From: Streptomyces xiaopingdaonensis
Lineage (GTDB): Bacteria; Actinomycetota; Actinomycetes; Streptomycetales; Streptomycetaceae
Assembly (NCBI RefSeq): GCF_000262345.1
Contig: NZ_AJTQ01000342.1
Location: 1-64,000 of the forward strand
DNA: 64,000 bases
Direction: 5' to 3'
Below are positions 5,305 through 64,000 of this stretch, piece after piece (within the stretch, counting starts at the first letter, position 1; the number at the start of each line of letters is the position of its first letter). Under the pieces are notes generated by a model. The model was given only the letters and a program-made list of their open reading frames with translations. It was not told the origin of the DNA and did not search any database. Both the position numbers and the translations under genes were made by a program.

Positions 5305-8175
5305 ATGACAGAGACGACGAGCGGCCCGGCACGCGGCTCCCGCGCGAAGGGCGGCAAGGCGAAGAAGGGGCTGCGGATCGAGCGCATCCACACGACCCCC
5401 GGTGTGCACCCGTACGACGAGGTCACCTGGGAGCGCCGCGACGTCGTCATGACCAACTGGCGCGACGGCTCGGTCAACTTCGAGCAGCGCGGCGTCGAGT
5501 TTCCCGACTTCTGGTCGGTGAACGCGGTCAACATCGTCACCAGCAAGTACTTCAGGGGCGCCGTCGGTACCCCGCAGCGGGAGAACAGCCTCAAGCAGCT
5601 GATCGACCGCGTCGTGAAGACCTACCGCAAGACCGGTGAGGAGAATGGTTACTTCGCCTCGCCGGAGGAAGCGGAGATCTTCGAGCACGAGCTCGCCTAT
5701 GCCGTGCTCCACCAGATCTTCGCCTTCAACTCCCCTGTCTGGTTCAACGTCGGGACGAAGCAGCCGCAGCAGGTCAGCGCCTGCTTCATCCTCTCCGTCG
5801 ACGACTCGATGGAGTCGATCCTCGACTGGTACAAGGAAGAGGGGATGATCTTCAAGGGCGGTTCGGGCGCCGGGCTCAACCTCTCGCGTATCCGCTCCTC
5901 CAAGGAGCTCCTCTCCTCGGGCGGCAACGCCTCGGGCCCCGTCTCCTTCATGCGGGGTGCGGACGCCTCCGCCGGCACCATCAAGTCGGGCGGCGCGACC
6001 CGGCGGGCGGCGAAGATGGTCGTACTCGACGTCGACCACCCGGACATCGAGGCCTTCATCGACACCAAGGTGAAGGAGGAGGAGAAGATCCGCGCCCTGC
6101 GGGACGCGGGCTTCGACATGGACCTCGGAGGCGACGACATCGCCTCCGTGCAGTACCAGAACGCCAACAACTCCGTGCGCGTCAACGACGAGTTCATGAA
6201 GGCCGTCGAGAACGGCACCAAGTTCTCGCTGCGCAGCAGGATGACGGGCGAGCCGTTGGAGGAGGTCGACGCCAAGGAGCTCTTCCGCAAGATGGCGGAG
6301 GCCGCCCACGTCTGCGCCGACCCCGGTGTCCAGTACGACGACACCATCAACCACTGGCACACCTCGCCGGAGTCGGGCCGCATCACCGCGTCCAACCCGT
6401 GCAGCGAGTACATGCACCTGGACAACTCCTCGTGCAATCTCGCGTCGCTGAACCTGATGAAGTTCCTGCGCGACGACGACGAGGGCAACCAGTCCTTCGA
6501 CGCCGAGCGGTTCGCGAAAATCACCGAGCTCGTCATCACGGCGATGGACATCTCCATCTGCTTCGCCGATTTCCCCACCGAGAAGATCGGCGAGACGACC
6601 CGCGCCTTCCGCCAGCTCGGCATCGGCTACGCCAACCTCGGCGCGCTGCTGATGGCCACGGGACACGCCTACGACAGCGACGGCGGGCGTGCCCTCGCGG
6701 GTGCCATCACCTCGCTGATGACCGGCACCTCCTACAAGCGCTCCGCCGAACTCGCCGCTGCTGTCGGCCCGTACGAGGGGTACGCCCGCAACTCCGACGC
6801 ACACCGCCGCGTGATGCGCCAGCACCGCGAGGCGAACGACGCGGCCGTGCGCATGGACGACCTCGACAACCCGGTCTGGGCCGCGGCCACCGAGGCGTGG
6901 CAGGACGTCGAGCGGCTCGGCGAGAAGAACGGCTTCCGGAACGCCCAGGCATCGGTGCTGGCGCCGACCGGGACCATCGGGCTGATGATGGACTGCGACA
7001 CCACGGGTGTCGAGCCCGACCTGGCGCTGGTGAAGTTCAAGAAGCTGGTCGGCGGCGGCTCCATGCAGATCGTCAACAACACCGTGCCGAAGGCGCTCAA
7101 GCGGCTCGGCTACCAGCCGGAGCAGGTCGAGGCGATCGTCGAGCACATCGCCGAGCACGGCAACGTGGTCGACGCTCCCGGGCTGCGCCCCGAGCACTAC
7201 GAGGTCTTCGACTGCGCGATGGGCGAGCGGTCCATCTCCCCGATGGGCCACGTGCGGATGATGGCCGCCGCGCAGCCGTTCCTCTCGGGTGCCATCTCCA
7301 AGACCGTCAACATGCCGGCGTCCAGCACCGTTGAGGACGTCGAGGAGATCTACCTCCAGGGCTGGAAGCTCGGCACCAAGGCGCTCGCCGTCTACGTCGA
7401 GAACAGCAAGGTCGGTCAGCCGCTCTCGGCGAAGCAGAAGGAGGAGCCGAAGACCGAGCAGGTCGTGGAGTACCGTCCGGTGCGCCGTCGCCTGCCGAAG
7501 GGGAGGCCCGGTATCACCACCTCCTTCACCGTGGGCGGGGCCGAGGGGTACATCACGGCCAACTCGTACCCGGACGACGGCCTCGGTGAGGTCTTCCTCA
7601 AGATGTCGAAGCAGGGCTCGACGCTCGCCGGGATGATGGACGCCTTCTCGATCGCGATCTCCGTCGGCCTCCAGTACGGAGTGCCGCTGGAGACGTACGT
7701 CTCGAAGTTCACGAACATGCGGTTCGAGCCGGCCGGGATGACCGACGACTCGGACGTGCGGATGGCGCAGTCGATCGTCGACTACATCTTCCGCCGACTC
7801 GCCCTGGACTTCCTGCCGTTCGAGACACGCTCGGCGCTCGGTATCCACTCGGCCGCGGAGCGCCAGCGCCACCTGGAGACGGGCTCCTACGAGCCGGCCG
7901 ACGACGAGTACGACCTCGACGGGCTCTCCCAGTCGGCGCCCAAGGCCCAGCAGCCGGCGAAGCAGAAGGACCCCGAAGAGGCCGACCGCACCGCTCCGGA
8001 ACCGGAGGCCGCGGCCCCGGCACCGCGCGAGGCGCACAACTCGACGGAGCTCATGGAGATGCAGCTCGGCCTCAACGCCGATGCACCGCTCTGCTTCTCC
8101 TGCGGCACCAAGATGCGCCGCGCGGGCAGCTGCTACCTCTGCGAGGGGTGCGGCTCGACGAGCGGCTGCAGCTGA
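5305..8175 (+). CDS. nrdJ: Adenosylcobalamin-dependent (class II) ribonucleotide reductase
   Basis: A 956-residue enzyme with GGGAGGCGG before the ATG. The radical-site residues lie in NPCSEYMHLDNSSCNLASLN (Asn, Cys and Glu in NPCSE), and a redox-active cysteine is in QVSACFILS. A C-terminal zinc ribbon (CFSCGTKM...CYLCEGCG) ends the protein. Before the ribbon lies an acidic, proline-rich linker of about 60 residues. It reduces ribonucleotides to deoxyribonucleotides using coenzyme B12, independent of oxygen. No cobalamin riboswitch is visible upstream. Control appears to be through NrdR, whose gene is directly upstream. Confidence 0.97.
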   Translation: MTETTSGPARGSRAKGGKAKKGLRIERIHTTPGVHPYDEVTWERRDVVMTNWRDGSVNFEQRGVEFPDFWSVNAVNIVTSKYFRGAVGTPQRENSLKQLIDRVVKTYRKTGEENGYFASPEEAEIFEHELAYAVLHQIFAFNSPVWFNVGTKQPQQVSACFILSVDDSMESILDWYKEEGMIFKGGSGAGLNLSRIRSSKELLSSGGNASGPVSFMRGADASAGTIKSGGATRRAAKMVVLDVDHPDIEAFIDTKVKEEEKIRALRDAGFDMDLGGDDIASVQYQNANNSVRVNDEFMKAVENGTKFSLRSRMTGEPLEEVDAKELFRKMAEAAHVCADPGVQYDDTINHWHTSPESGRITASNPCSEYMHLDNSSCNLASLNLMKFLRDDDEGNQSFDAERFAKITELVITAMDISICFADFPTEKIGETTRAFRQLGIGYANLGALLMATGHAYDSDGGRALAGAITSLMTGTSYKRSAELAAAVGPYEGYARNSDAHRRVMRQHREANDAAVRMDDLDNPVWAAATEAWQDVERLGEKNGFRNAQASVLAPTGTIGLMMDCDTTGVEPDLALVKFKKLVGGGSMQIVNNTVPKALKRLGYQPEQVEAIVEHIAEHGNVVDAPGLRPEHYEVFDCAMGERSISPMGHVRMMAAAQPFLSGAISKTVNMPASSTVEDVEEIYLQGWKLGTKALAVYVENSKVGQPLSAKQKEEPKTEQVVEYRPVRRRLPKGRPGITTSFTVGGAEGYITANSYPDDGLGEVFLKMSKQGSTLAGMMDAFSIAISVGLQYGVPLETYVSKFTNMRFEPAGMTDDSDVRMAQSIVDYIFRRLALDFLPFETRSALGIHSAAERQRHLETGSYEPADDEYDLDGLSQSAPKAQQPAKQKDPEEADRTAPEPEAAAPAPREAHNSTELMEMQLGLNADAPLCFSCGTKMRRAGSCYLCEGCGSTSGCS

Positions 8176-44799: not shown

Positions 44800-45657
44800 A
44801 TGAGCGGCATGAGAGACATCATCTCCGCAGCCGAACTCGCCGGCGACCTGAAGGCCGGGGAGTCGCCGACGCTCCTCGACGTCCGCTGGCAACTGGGCGG
44901 TCCGCCGGGACGCCCCGAGTACGCCGCAGGCCACCTGCCCGGCGCCGTCTACGTCGATCTGGAGACCGAACTCGCCGGCCCGCAGCAACCGGGCACCGGC
45001 CGTCATCCGCTGCCTTCCGCCGAGCAGTTCGGCGAGGCGATGCGCCGCGCAGGCGTACGGCAGGACCGGCCGGTCGTCACCTACGACGCAGGCGGGCCCA
45101 GCGGCGGCTGGGCCGCGGCGCGCGCCTGGTGGCTGCTGGGGTGGGCGGGGCACCAGCAGGTCAGCGTCCTCGACGGCGGGCTCGCCGCATGGTGCGCGGC
45201 CGACCTGCCCCTCACGACGGAGGAACCGCAGCCCGCCGAGGGCGACTTCCTCCCCCTCCCCGGCACCTTCTCCGTGCTCGACCCGTCGAGCGCCGCGTCC
45301 CTCGCCCGGCGCGGAGTGCTGCTCGACGCGAGGGCGGCCGAGCGGTACCGAGGGGACGTCGAGCCGATGGATCCCGCGGCCGGGCACATCCCGGGGGCCG
45401 TCTCCGCGCCCACCACGGAGAACCTCACGGACGCCGGAACCTTTCGCACGCCCGAGGCGCTGGCGGAACGCTTCGAAGCGCTGGGGGTGCGGCCGGGGGC
45501 CGAGGTCGGCGTCTACTGCGGCTCCGGTGTTTCCGCCGCCCACGAGGTGCTCGCGCTCCGGCTCGCGGGGATCGGTGCGCGGCTCTTCCCCGGCTCGTGG
45601 AGCGAGTGGTCCGCCGACCCCGCGCGGCCGGTGGCGACCGGGCCCGAGCGCGGCTGA
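44800..45657 (+). CDS. sseA: Thiosulfate/3-mercaptopyruvate sulfurtransferase (rhodanese)
   Basis: A 285-residue protein of two rhodanese domains. The N-terminal inactive one runs from ISAAELAGDL (active-site region YDAGGPSGG). The C-terminal one has the catalytic cysteine in VYCGSGVSAAHEVLAL. It transfers sulfur from thiosulfate or 3-mercaptopyruvate to a thiophilic acceptor. The CGSGVSA loop is closest to 3-mercaptopyruvate sulfurtransferases. Two in-frame ATGs (44800 and 44809) are possible starts; neither has a strong Shine-Dalgarno sequence. Confidence 0.88.
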   Translation: MSGMRDIISAAELAGDLKAGESPTLLDVRWQLGGPPGRPEYAAGHLPGAVYVDLETELAGPQQPGTGRHPLPSAEQFGEAMRRAGVRQDRPVVTYDAGGPSGGWAAARAWWLLGWAGHQQVSVLDGGLAAWCAADLPLTTEEPQPAEGDFLPLPGTFSVLDPSSAASLARRGVLLDARAAERYRGDVEPMDPAAGHIPGAVSAPTTENLTDAGTFRTPEALAERFEALGVRPGAEVGVYCGSGVSAAHEVLALRLAGIGARLFPGSWSEWSADPARPVATGPERG

Positions 45658-45660
45658 ACC

Positions 45661-45715
45661 GCGCCGGGCCCGACCGCGGACCCGGCGGACGGGTCTGCGC
45701 GGTCGGGCCCGGCGC
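45661..45715. terminator. Very strong bidirectional hairpin between sseA and sepH
   Basis: An 18-base perfect stem, GCGCCGGGCCCGACCGCG (45661-45678) with its exact complement at 45698-45715, around a 19-base loop between convergent genes. Confidence 0.85.
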
Positions 45716-57466: not shown

Positions 57467-58246
57467 GTGTTCGGACGTCGTCGCAAGAAGAGCGAAAAGC
57501 CTGAGGGCGCCTCGGACGAGTTCGAGACGGAACAGGACGCCTCGGACGAATCCGCGGGCGACGCTGCCGACGAGACCTCGGCCGCCCGCGTCAAGCTGCC
57601 GCCGGCGCCCCGCCCCGACGGCCCCTGGGACCTCGACGAGGTGACGGACCCCGAGACGGGCCGGGTCAACCTCGGCGGCATCTACGTCCCCGGCGTCGAG
57701 GGCATGGAGCTCCGTGTCGAGGTCGCGGGCGACGCGATCGTCGCGGCGACGATCGTGCTCCAGGACAGCGCCGTGCAGTTGCAGGCGTTCGCGGCCCCGA
57801 AGCGGGAGGGTCTCTGGGACGAGGTGCGCGAGGAGATCGGCTCGGGCATCACCAAGCAGGGCGGCGTCGTCGATGAGGTCGAGGGGGCGCTCGGCTGGGA
57901 GTTGAGGGCCCAGGTTCCGGTTCAGTTGCCGGACGGCAAGAACGGCGTGCAGGTCGTGCGCTTCGTCGGCGTCGACGGCAAGCGCTGGTTCCTGCGCGGT
58001 GTGATCTCCGGGCAGGGCGCCGTGCAGCCGGAGGCCGCGGGCCTGTTGGAGCAGATCTTCCGGGACACCGTGGTCGTCCGTGGCGACCAGCCGATGGCGC
58101 CTCGCGACCCGATCACCCTGAAGCTGCCGGACGACGCGCAGATGGTTCCCGAGGGCGTGCAGCAGGAGACCGTCGAGGAGGGCTCCCGGTTCGCGGGCGG
58201 CCTCGACAAGCTCCAGCGCGGCCCGGAGATCACCGAGGTGCGCTGA
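57467..58246 (+). CDS. DUF3710 family protein
   Basis: A 259-residue cytoplasmic protein from a GTG one base after the dut stop. A charged, disordered N-terminus (about 50 residues) is followed by the DUF3710 core (GPWDLDEV, RVNLGGIYVPG, ELRAQVPVQLPDG, VRFVGVDGKRWFLRGVISG). The family is restricted to actinobacteria and consistently linked to dut; its function is unknown. It ends at a terminator. Confidence 0.88.
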   Translation: MFGRRRKKSEKPEGASDEFETEQDASDESAGDAADETSAARVKLPPAPRPDGPWDLDEVTDPETGRVNLGGIYVPGVEGMELRVEVAGDAIVAATIVLQDSAVQLQAFAAPKREGLWDEVREEIGSGITKQGGVVDEVEGALGWELRAQVPVQLPDGKNGVQVVRFVGVDGKRWFLRGVISGQGAVQPEAAGLLEQIFRDTVVVRGDQPMAPRDPITLKLPDDAQMVPEGVQQETVEEGSRFAGGLDKLQRGPEITEVR

Positions 58247-58277
58247 GCGGCTGCGGATCTTCCGCGCGACGCAAGGA

Positions 58278-58299
58278 CCCGGAGGGCGACCCCTCCGGG
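58278..58299 (+). terminator. Hairpin after DUF3710
   Basis: A perfect 9-base stem, CCCGGAGGG with CCCTCCGGG, around a CGAC loop, 31 bases after the stop. Confidence 0.75.
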
Positions 58300-58402
58300 C
58301 CCTCTGCTTGTCGGCTTCGTCTTTCCGGGGGCGGTGCTTCGTCGCTGTGTCGTGGCCGCGGTGTTTGCGTCAACTCGCTCCGGGTGCGGGCCCGTCGGCG
58401 GC

Positions 58403-58639
58403 TCACGAGGTGTCGTCGCCCGCGTGCGCCGCCGCCTCCGGACGGGCGCACACATGCACGATCGCCGCGCGGGCCGCGGGTTCGCTGCCGGCGAGGGCCA
58501 GGGCGACACGGCGGGTGTGTTCCCGCGCGACAGCGACCCTGGTCCGGCTGCGCAGCCAGGCGCACGTGACGGTCGTCGCCGCCGAGACGAGCGCGAGGGC
58601 GGCGAGCAGGAGCGGTGGGGCGGCGACGAGCGACGACAT
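58403..58639 (-). CDS. 78-residue single-span membrane protein, divergent to the NACHT gene
   Basis: An ATG at 58639 with CCGGAGG 5 bases before it opens a 78-codon gene. Residues 5-28 (VAAPPLLLAALALVSAATTV) form a transmembrane helix. The remainder is a basic then helical cytoplasmic segment (RSRTRVAVAREHTRRVALAL...ARAAIVHVCARPEA). The family is unrecognised. It is head-to-head with the NACHT NTPase gene (108 bases apart), so the two may be co-regulated. That they form a functional pair is inference. Confidence 0.6.
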   Translation of the reverse strand: MSSLVAAPPLLLAALALVSAATTVTCAWLRSRTRVAVAREHTRRVALALAGSEPAARAAIVHVCARPEAAAHAGDDTS

Positions 58640-58711
58640 GGCGGCCTCCGGGGCTCGGCGGTGTGAGTCGCTCCAACTCTCCGACGTACAAGGGATTTCG
58701 CCATAGGCTGA

Positions 58712-58731
58712 GGAAACTCCGGGAAATTCCG
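58712..58731 (+). promoter_or_regulatory. Tandem 10-bp repeat at the NACHT gene promoter
   Basis: GGAAACTCCG and GGAAATTCCG stand directly in tandem, just downstream of a -10-like TAGGCT (58704-58709). The second copy holds the palindrome GGAA-A-TTCC. This is where an operator for the NACHT gene would lie. Confidence 0.4.
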
Positions 58732-58747
58732 TAGTCGGGAGTGACGC

Positions 58748-61700
58748 ATGCCAGGAGGCCGACCCGGGCGCCCGCGCAGCGAGGGAAGCGAGCCCTACGC
58801 CGAATTGCAGGACTTGGCGCGGTGGTTCCGCCGCGCCCTCGCCGACGCCGGGTACGAGAACCCGAACGCCGTCGTGCGCGACGAGTTGGCGCACAAGAAC
58901 GTCGTCTACGGCCTCTGCAACGGGGACAGGTTCGTCAGGGAGCGGGCGGCTCTCGGCCTCGCCAGGGCGCTCAACGCCGACGTGGAGGAGGCGGGGCGGC
59001 TCTGGCGGTTGGCGAAGGAGGCGATGGACCGCGCGGCCGAGGCGAGAATCGCCGCGCGTGCACCCCAGTTGACCTCCTGGTCGCAGTTGCCCAAGCCGCT
59101 GCTGGCCGTCAGGCAGTTGGTCACGGCGCAGGCGAAGGCCGTCGAGCGGCTCCCGTACGGCCTGCTCGGCGTCGAGGAACCCCCGCTCTCCGCCGTCTAC
59201 GTACGCCAGCAGGTACGCTCGGCCGCGGAGAGCAGCCCCGCCGACCGGGAGGCCCGTGGGGAGAGTCCGTCGGCGCGCAGCCCGGACGGGCACGCGGAGC
59301 AGCCGCGCGCCACCGCCGAGGTCACCCTGCCTGCGGCGGACGTGCTCGCCCGGCACGAGCACCTGCTCCTCACGGGCGAGCCAGGAGCCGGCAAGTCGAC
59401 GCTCTCCAGCCACCTCGCGTGGACGCTCGCCCGCATCTGGACGCGAGAGGAGACGAGCTACGACGCGCCCCTCAGCGAGCCGGTGGTGCCCGTGCGGGTG
59501 GCGGCCCGCTCGCTCGCAGGGGCGACGGGCTCGTGGAGCGAGACGCTGTGCAGGTCCGTCGCGTCGACGCTCGGAAGCGCACTCGTCGCCGAACCGCCCG
59601 CCGAACTCTTCGCCGCCCGTATCCAGGGCGCCCGCTGGCTCGTCCTCGTGGACGGCCTCGACGAGATCGCCGACCCCGAGGCGCGCACCGCGGTGATCCG
59701 GACTCTCGCCCAACACGCCAGGGACGGGAGCGACTACCGGTTCGTCGTGACGAGCAGGCCGCTGCCGGAGGCCGAACTCGCGCCGCTGCGGAGCGCGTCG
59801 ATGGGCGCTTATACTGTCGAGCCCTTCGGCCAGGAGGAGTTGCGGGACTTCGCGCACAGGTGGTTCGCGGCCCAGCACGGTACCGGCGAGGAGGCGAAGG
59901 CCGCCGCCGAGCGCTTCCTGACCGAGACAGCGGACGGCCGGCTCAGGGAACTCGTCCGCAACCCGCTCCTCGCCACGATCGCCGCCGTCAACGCGACGCT
60001 CGCCCCCGCCAAGCCGCTGCCGACGAGCCGCCTCACCCTCTACGAGGACTTCTGCGAACGGCTCCTCACCCGCGGCCTGAGCGAGCGGACGGCCCGCGAC
60101 GAGTTGCGCCGCCGCTGGGGCGACGACGAGCAGCGGTACGCCTTCCACCTGCGGCTGGAGAGCGAGAAGCGCCAACTCCTCGGAGAGCTGGGCAGGTTGC
60201 GGCTGGAGGAGGAGGCGTCGCTCTGGAAGGCGGCCGAGGACCGGATCGTCTCGGGCGGCGCCCCCGAGCTCCCCGGCTGGCAGGTCGACCTGCGCGAGTT
60301 CCTCTCGGCCACCGGCCTCCTCGTCGCGGAGGACGGGGACTTCCGCTTCCTCCACCACTCCTTCGCCGAGTTCATCGCGGCGCAGTCGTACGCCGAGCTG
60401 ATCGCTCCCGACTTTCCCGACATGGAGGAGTGGATGCGCCGCGCCCTCGCGGGGGAGCGGCGGAACCTGGGCGTTTTCGTCTTCTGCATGTGGGGGGCGC
60501 GGGACGGGTGCGATGCGGACGTCGTGGCGGACAGACTGCTGCTCGGGGGGCACGAACGAGTGCTTCTGGCGGGGCAGTTGATGGCGGAGGGGGTGGCGTT
60601 CTCGGAGGGGCGGAGGGGCGCGGTCGTCGGGAGACTGGAGGCGCTGGCGCGGAACGTGGAGGACACCGGGCGCTGCGACCGCGCCTTCGAGGTGCTCGGT
60701 GCGCTGGGAGGAGAGCCCGGGGTGCTCGCGCTGCTCGAAGAGTTGACGCGGTCCGAAGTCGTCGCGGCCGGACGGCGGTTGGGCGCCCTGGAAGCGCTCG
60801 CCGGCGCGGGCGCCGCCCAGCAGGCCAGGTCTCTTCTCCCCTCCCTGCTGGACTCGGTGTACGAGACGATGCCCCGGGCCGCCCGGCTCGCCTGCTCGCT
60901 CGGCGAGGCCGCCCGCCAGGCCGTGAGGCAGCGCCTCGACGGGATGGTGCGTGAGCCCGACGCCGACTGGTTCGAGTGTTCCTTCGCGGCCGAGGCCGCC
61001 CAGGTGCTCGGAGACGCCGAGAAGACGGCACACCTGGCGCGTGAGGTCCTCGCCGACCCGCTGGCACGGCGCTCCTGGCTGAAGCGTGCGGCCGAGGCGT
61101 GGCTGAGAGCCGCGGGCGAAGCCGCCGTACCCGAGATCGTCCAACTCGCCGAGCAGCGGCCCGCGTCGGACCAGGTGGCCCGGCTGGCGCTCGCGGAGGC
61201 GATGGAGCACCTCGGCGGACAGCAGCAGGCGGCCCGGATCGCCTCGGAGGTGCTCGTGTCCCCGCACGCAGGCGGCGGGGAGCTGCGCGCGGCGGCGGAG
61301 CTGTGCACACGGGTGCGCGGGCGCGACGCGTGGGAGCAGGTGGCGGCCGCAGTGGATCGCACCGCCTCGGACCCCGCGCACTACACGTTCGTCCCCGGCC
61401 ACCTTCTGCACACGGTGGCGCTCCTCGACCCGCCGCGGGTGGCCGAGCGGGCGTCCGCACTCGTGCCGGCGTCCCGGTGCGCTCTGGGGACCGGGGCCTC
61501 GGTCTGCGCCGTGTGGTGTCCCGGAGGGGGAACCTGCGCGTGCAGCGGACCTGCGTGTACGCCGTCGCAAGGAACTCGCCGCACTGGGCGAGCGCGAGGC
61601 GGCACTGGAAGTGTGGCGTGCCGAGATACGCGAACCCCGCACGCACCAGTTGTTCAGCACCAAGCTCCTCACGGACCTCGAAGAAGCCCGAACCACCCAC

Positions 61701-61865
61701 GAGGCCACGACCTGGCTCCGCGACCTCCTGGCCGACCCCGACCTCCACCCGCCCCGCCGCCTCCGCCTGCGGCAGATGCTCGCCTGGCTCTCCGTCCACG
61801 AGGGCGAGATCCCGGCCACCGCACCCCGACAGACCGCCGGGCCGCAACCCCATACGCGATCCTGA
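58748..61865 (+). CDS. NACHT-domain STAND NTPase with HTH-like N-terminus; frameshifted near its 3' end
   Basis: ATG 58748 after GGGAG opens about 905 codons of clear coding sequence. Residues 10-95 (LQDLARWFRRALADAGYEN, KNVVYGLCNGDRFVRER) resemble an HTH domain. The NACHT module has Walker A GEPGAGKS with Lys216 and Walker B VLVDGLDE with Asp302. FLHHSFAEFIAAQSYAE ends the winged-helix region, then HEAT/TPR-like helices follow. Such proteins are NLR-like switches; bacterial members include antiphage bNACHTs. Near 61460-61560 coding shifts to the next frame, which continues as KELAALGEREAALEVWRAE and ends RLRQMLAWLS... at TGA 61865. A natural frameshift, small deletion or sequence error could explain this. 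Confidence 0.78.
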
Positions 61866-61921
61866 CGCCCACCGCCGCCCGCGGCGCAGGCGGCGGTGCG
61901 GGCACCGGTCACAATGAGGGC

Positions 61922-64000
61922 ATGTCGTCAGCACCCCGGACCCGCGGTCAACTGCGGATCTACCTCGGAGCAGCACCCGGCGTGGGGAAGACGTACGCCA
62001 TGCTCTCCGAGGCCGGCCGGCGCCGGGAGCGCGGCACCGACATCGTCGTCGGGTACGTCGAGCCCCACGACCGGCCGCGTACCGCTGAGTTGCTGCGCGG
62101 GCTGGAGGTCGTGCCGCGGCTGCCGGCCGAGGGCGGGGGCCCCGGCGAGATGGACACCGAGGCGCTCCTCGCGCGGGCCCCCGCCGTGGCCGTCGTCGAC
62201 GAGCTGGCGCACACCAACGCACCCGGCTCCGCGCGCGAGAAGCGCTGGCAGGACGTGGAGGCGCTGCTGGCCGCCGGTATCGACGTCATATCGACGGTCA
62301 ACATCCAGCACCTGGAGTCCCTCGTCGGTGTCGTGGAGTCCATCACGGGCACACGGCAGCAGGAGACGGTCCCCGACGAGGTGGTGCGCAGGGCGGAGCA
62401 GATCGAGCTGGTGGACATGACGCCGCAGGCGCTCCGCCGCCGCCTCGCCCACGGCAACGTCTACTCCTCCGACAAGATCGACGCGGCGCTCTCGCACTAC
62501 TTCCGCGTCGGCAACCTCACGGCCCTGCGCGAGCTTGCGCTGCTGTGGACGGCCGACCGCGTCGACGAGTACCTCCAGAAGTACCGCACCGAGCACCGCA
62601 TCAAGTCGCCCTGGCAGGCCCGCGAACGGATCGTCGTCGGCCTCAGCGGCGGGCCGGAGGGCCGTACGCTCATCCGCCGCGCCGCGCGGATGGCCGCCAA
62701 GGGGTCGGGGAGCCAGGTCCTCGCCGTCTCGGTGGTCTCCGCCGACGAGCTGCGGCCGGCGGCCGCGCGTGAACTCGCCGTCCAGCGGACCCTCGTCGAG
62801 GACCTGGGCGGCACCTACCACCAGGTGATCGGGGACGAGATCCCCGCGGCCCTGCTGGACTTCGCCCGCGGCGTCAACGCGACGCAGATCGTGCTCGGCT
62901 CCTCGCGGCGCAAGCCGTGGCAGTACGTCTTCGGCCCTGGCGTCGGGGCGCTGGTGGCGAGCGAGGCCGGACCCGACCTCGACGTCCACATCGTCACGCA
63001 CCGCGAGAACGCGCACGTGCGGGGGCTGCCTGTGGCGCGGGGGACGACCCGGCTCGGCCGGGCACGCGTGATCGCCGGGTGGCTCGCGGCCGTCGTGGGC
63101 CCGGTGCTGCTCGGCGTCCTGATGAGCTCCGTCGACCCGAGGCTCGGGTTCGCCAACGACGTCCTCCTCTTCCTCGTGGTGACGGTCGCGGCCGGGCTCG
63201 TCGGCGGGCTCCTCCCCGCGCTCGCCTCCGCCGCGCTCTGCTCGCTGCTGCTCAACTACTTCTTCACGGTGCCGACGCACACCTGGACGGTGAGCAGTCC
63301 GCGCAGCGTCGTCTCGATCGCGATCTTCTTCGGGGTGGCGGTCGCCGTCGCCTCCGTCGTCGACCTCGCCGCGCGCCGCACCGAGCAGGCGCAGCGCCTG
63401 CGCGCCGAGTCCGAGATCCTCTCCGTCCTCGCAGGCAGCGTGCTGCGGGGCGAGGACACCCTGGAGGTCCTCCTGGAGCGGGTGCGCGAGACCTTCGGCA
63501 CGGAGTCCGTCGCACTGCTGGAGAGGGAGGACGAGCGGGGCCCGTGGACCTGCGCCGCGAGCGTGGGGGAGGGGCGGCAGCTCGTCCGCCCCGAGGACGG
63601 GGACGTGGACATGCCGGTCGGCGACCACATGATGCTCGTCCTCTCCGGACGGGTGCTCCCCGCCGAGGACCGCAGGGTGCTCGCCGCCTTCGCCGCCCAG
63701 GCGGCCCGCGTCCTCGACCGCGAGCGGCTCCTCGGCGAGGCCGAGCGCGCCCGGGACCTCGCCGAGGGCAACCGGATCAGGACCGCGCTCCTCGCCGCGG
63801 TCTCCCACGATCTGCGGACGCCGCTCGCGGCGATCAAGGCGTCGGTCTCCTCGCTGCGTTCGGCCGACGTCGAGTGGTCGCCCGAGGACGAGGCGGAGCT
63901 GCTCCTCGCGATCGAGGAGGGCGCGGACCGGCTCGACAACCTCGTCGGCAACCTGCTCGACATGTCCCGTCTCAACACCGGCACCGTGGCGCCGCTGATC
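61922..64000 (+). CDS. kdpD: Osmosensitive K+ channel sensor kinase KdpD, N-terminal part
   Basis: The gene runs off the window after about 693 codons. The KdpD N-terminal ATP-binding domain has GAAPGVGKT (residues 16-24) and VVDELAHTN. A USP-like domain follows (RIVVGLSGGPEGRTLIRRA). Four hydrophobic helices span about 375-475. A GAF-like domain then leads to the HisKA box with His629 in AVSHDLRTPLAAIK. It senses potassium limitation or turgor and phosphorylates KdpE; kdpE should lie just beyond the window. CACAAT lies 6 bases before the ATG with no Shine-Dalgarno sequence, so kdpD appears to have its own leaderless promoter rather than depending on the NACHT gene. Confidence 0.96.
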   Translation, partial: MSSAPRTRGQLRIYLGAAPGVGKTYAMLSEAGRRRERGTDIVVGYVEPHDRPRTAELLRGLEVVPRLPAEGGGPGEMDTEALLARAPAVAVVDELAHTNAPGSAREKRWQDVEALLAAGIDVISTVNIQHLESLVGVVESITGTRQQETVPDEVVRRAEQIELVDMTPQALRRRLAHGNVYSSDKIDAALSHYFRVGNLTALRELALLWTADRVDEYLQKYRTEHRIKSPWQARERIVVGLSGGPEGRTLIRRAARMAAKGSGSQVLAVSVVSADELRPAAARELAVQRTLVEDLGGTYHQVIGDEIPAALLDFARGVNATQIVLGSSRRKPWQYVFGPGVGALVASEAGPDLDVHIVTHRENAHVRGLPVARGTTRLGRARVIAGWLAAVVGPVLLGVLMSSVDPRLGFANDVLLFLVVTVAAGLVGGLLPALASAALCSLLLNYFFTVPTHTWTVSSPRSVVSIAIFFGVAVAVASVVDLAARRTEQAQRLRAESEILSVLAGSVLRGEDTLEVLLERVRETFGTESVALLEREDERGPWTCAASVGEGRQLVRPEDGDVDMPVGDHMMLVLSGRVLPAEDRRVLAAFAAQAARVLDRERLLGEAERARDLAEGNRIRTALLAAVSHDLRTPLAAIKASVSSLRSADVEWSPEDEAELLLAIEEGADRLDNLVGNLLDMSRLNTGTVAPLI

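What the first reader, a model, noticed from the sequence alone, without database searches (positions are those of the whole stretch)
58748..61865. Large NACHT NTPase wedged between core genes
Seen: HTH-like N-terminus, Walker A GEPGAGKS, NACHT Walker B VLVDGLDE and a long helical-repeat C-terminus. Known: bacterial NACHT (bNACHT) and other STAND proteins include antiphage sensors, and Streptomyces has many uncharacterised ones. Inferred: this is an inserted accessory gene, since the flanking DUF3710 and kdpD belong to a conserved block. The combination with a divergent mini membrane protein is not one I recognise as a described defence system.
Basis: partly seen in the sequence, partly recalled or inferred. 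Interest (0 to 1): 0.7.

Follow-up and report, generated by a model that had tools for sequence, protein, structure and literature searches.

The report
Self-regulated bacterial immune-type sensor with membrane partner
A Streptomyces gene that resembles human inflammasome sensors turns out to belong to a conserved two-gene set, with its own probable DNA-binding domain, its own control site and a tiny membrane-protein partner, although the copy in this genome looks damaged; if it works as inferred, it would be an immune-type sensor that also acts as its own gene switch.

Summary
The NACHT gene is real and accessory, but 58748-61865 is not one reading frame. About 0.45 kb (165-195 residues) near its 3' end is missing against 15 intact orthologues, and the end resumes in another frame. 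The sister genome keeps only a deletion scar, so this copy is probably decaying. Their shared gap holds a 31-bp inverted-repeat site found once in the 6.5-Mb assembly. The N-terminus is a probable Xre/lambda-repressor-type HTH, by fold and by sub-threshold Pfam matches in orthologues. The whole is NLR-like (best PDB matches NLRP3 and Avs4). A subclade without the HTH also lacks mini and site. Best reading: a self-contained NLR-type switch whose HTH binds the shared operator, whose repeats sense a trigger, and whose NACHT step releases the HTH and engages the membrane partner, most likely for defence or cell death. Module and site are well supported by comparison; DNA binding, membrane action and defence are inferred. 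The DUF3710-kdpD interval is a variable slot that often holds kdpABC.

The parts
57467..58246 (+). DUF3710 gene, left flank
   Evidence: Pfam DUF3710 215 bits; present in 59 of 61 genus genomes
58403..58639 (-). mini: 78-aa protein with one predicted N-terminal membrane helix and a conserved charged tail, divergent from the NACHT gene
   Evidence: tblastn of the window mini alone finds 11 of 80 NACHT loci, each just upstream and divergent; family profile finds L108 at 1.6e-10 without having been trained on it; alignment A4
58696..58726 (+). 31-bp operator-like site: inverted repeat TTTCC..GGAAA around a TAnnnT, plus a third GGAAA half-site
   Evidence: alignment of 17 upstream regions; pattern in 14 of 16 orthologues and L108; unique in own genome with up to 1 mismatch; matrix trained without the window scores it 35.9 bits against -0.7 for the next best in the window
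58748..61477 (+). open first-frame part of the HTH-NACHT-helical-repeat gene (910 codons; homology to family positions 3-891)
58799..59059 (+). probable Xre/lambda-repressor-type helix-turn-helix domain (residues 18-104)
   Evidence: five-helix model and PDB fold matches; sub-threshold Pfam HTH_3/HTH_31 in 5 of 10 orthologues; none in the window protein
59090..59218 (+). conserved linker LPY..LSAVYVRQ (residues 115-157), shared with caspase-bearing relatives L109, L110 and L112
   Evidence: alignments A1 and A2; caspase domains
59363..59872 (+). NACHT NTPase domain; Walker A at 59375-59398, Walker B at 59642-59665
   Evidence: Pfam PF05729 residues 206-375; invariant residues in A2
60347..60373 (+). 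FLHHSFAEF motif, likely winged-helix part of the NACHT module
   Evidence: invariant F534, L535, H536, A540, E541 in A2; the winged-helix label is from general knowledge
60422..61426 (+). TPR/HEAT-like helical repeats, presumed sensor, part that is still in frame
   Evidence: AlphaFold2 model, helices 559-905
61427..61553 (+). broken junction: net loss of about 0.45 kb against the family and a change of frame
   Evidence: profile gap 891-1085; codon scores leave the first frame here, favour a third frame for about 75 bp, then the last frame
61554..61865 (+).
   Evidence: profile positions 1085-1167, 54 bits; 46-48% identity to the C-termini of L176, L178 and L179
61922..64000 (+). kdpD, right flank (runs past the window end); 877 aa
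   Evidence: Pfam KdpD 299 bits; length

Best explanation
This is a (probably decaying) copy of a conserved actinobacterial two-gene module: a single-pass mini membrane protein and, head-to-head with it, an HTH-NACHT-helical-repeat protein, sharing one intergenic operator. At rest, the HTH at the N-terminus (where some relatives carry a protease) binds the operator across the NACHT promoter and keeps both genes low. When the C-terminal repeats sense a trigger, most likely an invader, the NACHT domain takes up nucleotide and oligomerises, which moves the HTH off or re-sets it and engages the mini at the membrane to stop growth or kill the cell. Shown by comparison: the module, the conserved site, the NACHT and repeat domains, accessory status and the broken C-terminus here; the HTH is probable. 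Inferred: HTH-operator binding, repression, membrane action and defence.
For: Module: mini head-to-head in 14 of 16 near-full-length orthologues (11 found with the window mini alone; the rest by alignment), weakly in L187, and in L108, which was not in the profile (E 1.6e-10). Site: pattern in 14 of 16 plus L108, L180 missing it by one base; no other match in 99 loci and the 64-kb window; one site in the own genome, reversed control 0; matrix test. HTH: fold, sub-threshold Pfam. NLR-like fold: NLRP3 E 4.9e-8, Avs4 E 4.6e-4. Linkage: 11 Pseudonocardiaceae members without the HTH also lack mini and site. A second HTH-NACHT clade shows a different inverted repeat ahead of the start (48 bp in L111), which fits an HTH that reads its own promoter (by eye). 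Effector position: of 9 relatives scanned, caspase domains pass the Pfam cut-off in L109, L110, L112 and Trypsin_2 in L142, L143, L147, all before the NACHT. Decay.
Against: No experiment. L197 keeps an HTH-like N-terminus but has neither mini nor site. L187's mini match covers only the membrane helix. A mini-like stretch also lies upstream of L247, outside the group (E 1.2e-4, better than L187), with no good site, so mini and site are not strictly tied. No orthologue N-terminus of the 10 re-scanned passes a Pfam HTH cut-off, 5 of 10 show no HTH match, and no PDB fold match has E at or below 0.001 (best 0.12). Called neighbours show no defence island: in the lists shown, mostly transporters, regulators and enzymes, 3 integrases, and single PADLOC matches (79 of 87 called proteins given; gene calling was incomplete). 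No relative in phages or in a pattern scan of viral contigs. The charged tail of the mini looks more like an interaction surface than a pore former. Two other order genomes have strong mini matches without a NACHT relative or site in the fetched stretch; the one in G108 has an in-frame stop.
Confidence: 0.5

Rival explanations
1. Dedicated STAND transcription regulator that is not defence: it senses a metabolite or membrane state through its repeats and controls only itself and the mini, which acts in membrane or envelope physiology (in the manner of MalT or AfsR, recalled).
For: [quoted passage not shown] single site in the genome; no defence-island context seen.
Against: Patchy, accessory distribution and decay in this lineage; NLRP3 and Avs4 among the best folds; some relatives carry protease domains in place of the HTH, usual in conflict proteins.
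Confidence: 0.25
2. The mini is not an effector but the membrane anchor, receptor or inhibitor of the NACHT protein; the output is the HTH alone or the oligomer itself.
For: The tail of the mini is the conserved part (T42 and R57 invariant, W28, R32, R44, A63 nearly so); EACC1, a single-TM partner of other conflict proteins, was proposed as a membrane sensor (PMC7159879, section 33).
Against: Nothing direct; no structure of the pair could be computed here.
Confidence: 0.35
3. The C-terminal break in the window is an assembly or sequencing error and the gene is intact in the living strain.
For: Draft of 384 contigs; the first 910 codons are open; the mini and site look intact.
Against: About 0.45 kb is missing, not one base, and the junction does not align to the family; the sister genome also lost the gene, leaving a scar.
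Confidence: 0.15
4. A plain single-gene bNACHT protein with a chance ORF beside it.
For: The mini is short and matches no Pfam family above cut-off.
Against: Protein-level conservation of the mini at one position in 14 of 16 orthologues and L108, and the shared site.
Confidence: 0.02

Closest known systems
bNACHT proteins (bacterial NLR-related antiphage proteins, e.g. bNACHT25; PMC12169576, passages read)
   Same: Central NACHT module, N-terminal output part, C-terminal sensing part
   Different: N-terminal part is a probable Xre-type HTH, not a nuclease; paired divergently with a mini membrane protein through a shared site; clade not assignable here
EACC1 membrane-associated two-gene system (eLife 2020, PMC7159879, section 33 read)
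   Same: Small single-TM protein paired with a larger conflict-type protein, common in actinobacteria; second components can include STAND NTPases
   Different: EACC1 is the 5' gene of a pair whose second protein often begins with a caspase; the mini here is not EACC1 by Pfam, is divergent, and its partner is HTH-NACHT
Avs / AVAST STAND sensors (Avs4, PDB 8dgf)
   Same: STAND NTPase with repeat C-terminus; fold match E 4.6e-4
   Different: No HTH known in these (recalled); Pfam NACHT here
NLRP3-type NLRs
   Same: Best PDB fold match
   Different: Low TM-score (0.32) and 12% identity; helical repeats, no leucine-rich repeat family found by Pfam
LypABC CARD-NLR-like system with Xre repressor CdxB (PMC13236601, passages read)
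   Same: NLR-like system held down by an Xre-family repressor
   Different: There the repressor is a separate protein; here the HTH is part of the NLR-like protein
STAND transcription regulators such as MalT and AfsR (recalled)
   Same: HTH plus STAND NTPase plus TPR-like repeats
   Different: Different NTPase clade and HTH type; divergent mini partner

Membership tests
NACHT STAND NTPase | NACHT domain above Pfam cut-off with Walker A and B | tested here: met
   32.3 bits against 26.7, NPHP3_N close (31.3 against 24.8); in orthologues L176 and L179 and in L108 only NPHP3_N passes its cut-off
NACHT STAND NTPase | NLR-like overall fold | tested here: met
   Top seven PDB rows are NLRP3, best E 4.9e-8, TM 0.32
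bNACHT antiphage clades | Placement in a described clade | not testable with these tools
   No clade models held; NCBIfam EruA only 30.4 of 1000 bits; the 4 PADLOC matches are weak and none is named NACHT
bNACHT antiphage clades | Protection from phage | not tested
   Bench work
Xre-family HTH regulator | Pfam HTH match in the window protein | tested here: not met
   0 families for the window N-terminus at E up to 1
Xre-family HTH regulator | Pfam HTH match in orthologues | tested here: inconclusive
   HTH_3 and/or HTH_31 at E 1.6e-4 to 0.02 in 5 of 10, all under the cut-offs; the strong matches (to 1e-12) are not from these 10
Xre-family HTH regulator | Xre/lambda-repressor fold | tested here: met
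   Foldseek probability to 1.00, e.g. C.AhdI TM(target) 0.80 and BldD 0.78; but no E at or below 0.001
EACC1 two-gene system | Mini matches EACC1 above cut-off | tested here: not met
   1 of 15 minis at E 0.016; window mini none
EACC1 two-gene system | Caspase or cyclase at the N-terminus of the partner | tested here: not met
   Pfam shows neither in the window protein

The most novel reading that the evidence does not exclude
An NLR-type sensor that is its own transcriptional repressor: one polypeptide joins a lambda-repressor-like HTH to an inflammasome-type NTPase, holds a dedicated operator shut, and on sensing an invader both de-represses itself and fires a membrane-acting mini protein, giving a feed-forward immune or death switch.
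Probability: 0.33. Interest if true: 0.85.

Novelty: new variant of a known kind. Interest (0 to 1): 0.6.

Why it matters
How bacteria keep immune sensors silent until infection is an open question. This module offers a compact answer that can be tested with one DNA-binding assay: the sensor would carry its own repressor domain. It also gives a concrete actinobacterial family (Streptomyces, Kitasatospora, Micromonospora, Actinoplanes, Actinomadura, Kibdelosporangium, Streptosporangiaceae) with a diagnostic intergenic site and a membrane partner of unknown type.

Tried and rejected
Core gene: rejected; absent from 55 other DUF3710-kdpD intervals. Intact single ORF: rejected. Programmed frameshift: rejected, because a whole stretch of family positions is missing, not a base. 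Deliberate NACHT-KdpD fusion: the first frame runs open into kdpD, but codon scores there are poor, tblastn finds no KdpD, DUF3710 or dut relative in the 16 orthologue loci at E up to 1e-5, and KdpD aligns from its own residue 1 in the sister genome; I take it as chance. Defence island around orthologues: not seen, in incomplete gene calls. Phage carriage: none found. Solved relatives by sequence: none at E up to 0.1. tRNA-linked insertion: tRNA genes in 3 of 16 orthologue loci. Mini as a known family: no Pfam match above cut-off; PHROGs only weak (best E 0.013; a holin family, phrog_1350, in 1 of 15 at 0.059). The DNA search of genus genomes with the 3' half gave mostly short chance-like matches (157 of 199 genomes at E up to 1e-3) and was not used for counts; its one longer foreign match, 320 bp at 67% in G258, was not followed. 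The single-sequence scan of genome contigs found nothing; the alignment scan did.

Full report
Observation. Pfam places NACHT at residues 206-375 (32.3 bits, cut-off 26.7), with NPHP3_N close behind. The frame does not end at 61865: the span 58748-61865 is 3118 nt, the first frame stays open into kdpD, and the stop at 61863-61865 is in another frame. Codon scores support the first frame to about 61480, a third frame for roughly 75 bp, and the last frame from about 61550.

The break. A scan of genome contigs with a 9-sequence alignment found 266 relatives and kept 80 loci. Sixteen of the 80 begin to match by residue 19 and are read here as near-full-length orthologues; 15 of them are 32-53% identical to the window's open part. 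As read from their likely starts, the 16 are 1125-1220 aa long in one frame. A profile of 15 (L197 left out; 1175 positions) aligns to the window at 3-891 in the first frame (weakly to 922) and at 1085-1167 in the other. The 127 bp between should hold about 193 codons, so about 0.45 kb is gone. Genome G224 has DUF3710 at 99.6% and KdpD at 98.7% identity to the window's. Its interval is about 670 bp, with a 132-bp piece of the gene at 77% identity and roughly its last 100 bp; the mini is lost too. The lineage is losing the gene. The assembly is a 384-contig draft, so an error in the window cannot be ruled out.

The slot. DUF3710 was found in 59 of 61 genus genomes. Intervals were fetched for all 59. 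In 56 of 59, the own one included, kdpD lies on the same strand 150-8577 bp downstream; two have none within the 12.1 and 10.9 kb fetched, and one contig ends 52 bp on. Twelve of 56 hold three ORFs of KdpA, KdpB and KdpC size; one representative set matched KdpA, E1-E2 ATPase and KdpC. Twenty hold a member of an ABC-ATPase cluster and eleven a member of an alginate-lyase-like cluster (one representative of each checked). The own genome has no close KdpB; the best match is 35% identical. So the module sits in a slot where kdpABC often lies, next to a kdpD without its pump.

The partner. The mini (58403-58639, minus strand) matched no other DUF3710-kdpD interval at E up to 1e-3. Its sequence alone found 11 of the 80 NACHT loci by tblastn with E below 0.02, every one immediately upstream and divergent. 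Reading the same place by eye gave candidates in 15 of the 16 orthologues. A profile built from 15 minis (window plus 14) re-finds those 14 by construction; beyond them it finds L108, a Nonomuraea relative, divergent upstream (E 1.6e-10), L247 (1.2e-4, a mini-like stretch upstream of a NACHT outside the group) and L187 (7e-4, membrane helix only), and a few weaker ones; L197 has none. The proteins have one membrane helix near the N-terminus and a tail with invariant T42 and R57. No Pfam family fits. Among 197 order genomes, 6 have a match at E 0.001 or better; besides the own one, two are strong (G108, G166). Neither fetched stretch shows a NACHT relative or the site, and the G108 copy has an in-frame stop.

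The site. Aligning the upstream regions showed one conserved block, in outline TTTCC-N3-CTAnnnT-N2-GGAAAC-N5-GGAAA. A pattern made from it matches the window, 14 of 16 orthologues and L108 once each, in the gap, and nothing else in 99 loci and the window, both strands. L180 misses by one base, and L197 lacks both site and mini. Since the pattern came from these loci, the independent tests are L108, the own genome (one site allowing one mismatch, reversed control 0) and a matrix trained on 12 sites without the window: 35.9 bits at 58696, next best in the window -0.7. Also outside training: L183 33.3, L200 26.4, L108 24.9, L186 13.5; the best scores at other places in the 14 loci scanned, or in those without a mini, reach about 7. 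The two arms flank a TAnnnT that could be a -10 element of the NACHT gene (inference; the sigma-70 scan found no promoter).

The HTH. The window N-terminus has no Pfam match. HTH_3 and HTH_31 match 8 and 7 of 20 wider-family N-termini at E up to 1, but of 10 orthologues re-scanned only L180, L182, L183, L184 and L186 show them, at E 1.6e-4 to 0.02 and under the cut-offs. A model of residues 1-114 (pLDDT 86.2) gives, by their titles, mostly Xre and lambda-repressor-type proteins in PDB, such as C.AhdI and BldD, with probabilities up to 1.00 but no E-value at or below 0.001. A second HTH-NACHT clade (L111, L209, L204, L203) has no mini by the profile, yet these four show a different inverted repeat (GTGTCCC/GGGACAC-like) ahead of the start, 48 bp in L111 (read by eye). 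Xre regulators often autoregulate through palindromes (PMC12565409, start of abstract in the search listing).

Family. In a tree of 94 NACHT cores (quick method, SH-aLRT support only; two mini rows have odd composition), all 17 rows labelled mini, L187 among them, lie in one 29-row group (support 94); the label needs 3 changes against a shuffled mean of 15.8, 0 of 500 shuffles as low. Inside it, 11 Pseudonocardiaceae rows lack the HTH; several of their N-termini read NEISGG..GPVVQAG, others differ, and they have neither mini upstream nor site. L197, also inside, keeps an HTH-like N-terminus without mini or site, and L247, outside, has a mini-like stretch without a good site, so the link is strong but not strict. 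Of 9 more distant relatives scanned, a caspase domain passes the Pfam cut-off in L109, L110 and L112 and Trypsin_2 in L142, L143 and L147; L144 is under the cut-off, L141 and L145 show neither. The caspase-bearing ones share the LPY..YVRQ linker.

Fold and function. The model of the 910 residues (pLDDT 84.8) matches NLRP3 best (E 4.9e-8, TM 0.32) and then Avs4 (E 4.6e-4). The anatomy is a sensor (repeats), a switch (NACHT), an output domain that probably binds DNA (HTH), and a membrane partner. My reading is an invader-sensing switch. The called neighbours do not prove it: 79 of 87 were scanned, with 25 of 39 PADLOC and 25 of 110 Pfam families shown. No match was found in phages or, by a pattern scan, in viral contigs.

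Known and new. Literature searches (several lists were capped at 10-20 rows) listed no paper that by title or start of abstract describes this pairing. I read section 33 and passages of PMC7159879, and passages of PMC12169576, PMC13236601, PMC13092281, PMC8195603 and PMC8086366. The founding bNACHT paper (Kibby et al. 2023, recalled) was not seen. The library lacks most subscription papers, so the claim of novelty is limited to these searches.

Noticed in passing
window 58246-61922 and 55 other genomes: The DUF3710-kdpD interval is a variable slot (150-8577 bp): kdpABC-size ORFs in 12 of 56, an ABC-ATPase cluster member in 20, an alginate-lyase-like cluster member in 11, others singly.
   Followed up: partly
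window 58748-64000: As sequenced, the NACHT frame runs without a stop into kdpD, giving an open frame of about 1936 aa; probably chance in GC-rich DNA.
   Followed up: partly
L189, L191-L196, L198, L199, L201, L202: Pseudonocardiaceae relatives have a short N-terminus in place of the HTH, often NEISGG..GPVVQAG, which recalls amyloid-type signalling motifs (recalled, not tested).
   Followed up: no
L111, L209, L204, L203 upstream of the NACHT start: A second HTH-NACHT clade without mini has its own inverted repeat, GTGTCCC/GGGACAC-like, near the same position (by eye).
   Followed up: partly
L247 about 5545-5698 (-): A mini-like stretch divergent from an HTH-NACHT gene of Actinoplanes italicus outside the main group (E 1.2e-4); the partner may be wider spread than the tree shows.
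   Followed up: partly
L109, L110, L112; L142, L143, L147: Relatives carry caspase (first three) or trypsin-like (last three) domains ahead of the NACHT.
   Followed up: partly
L263 about 7169-7345 (G108): A mini without NACHT in the fetched stretch and with an in-frame TAG, perhaps the relic of a lost module.
   Followed up: partly
G258:C759:3128-3447: A 320-bp stretch 67% identical to window 60677-60996, the longest foreign DNA match.
   Followed up: no
window 45618-45693 (-): A tRNA-Sec gene was called by ARAGORN.
   Followed up: no
own genome: kdpD is kept although no close KdpB was found (best 35%), so the sensor kinase lacks its usual pump genes.
   Followed up: partly
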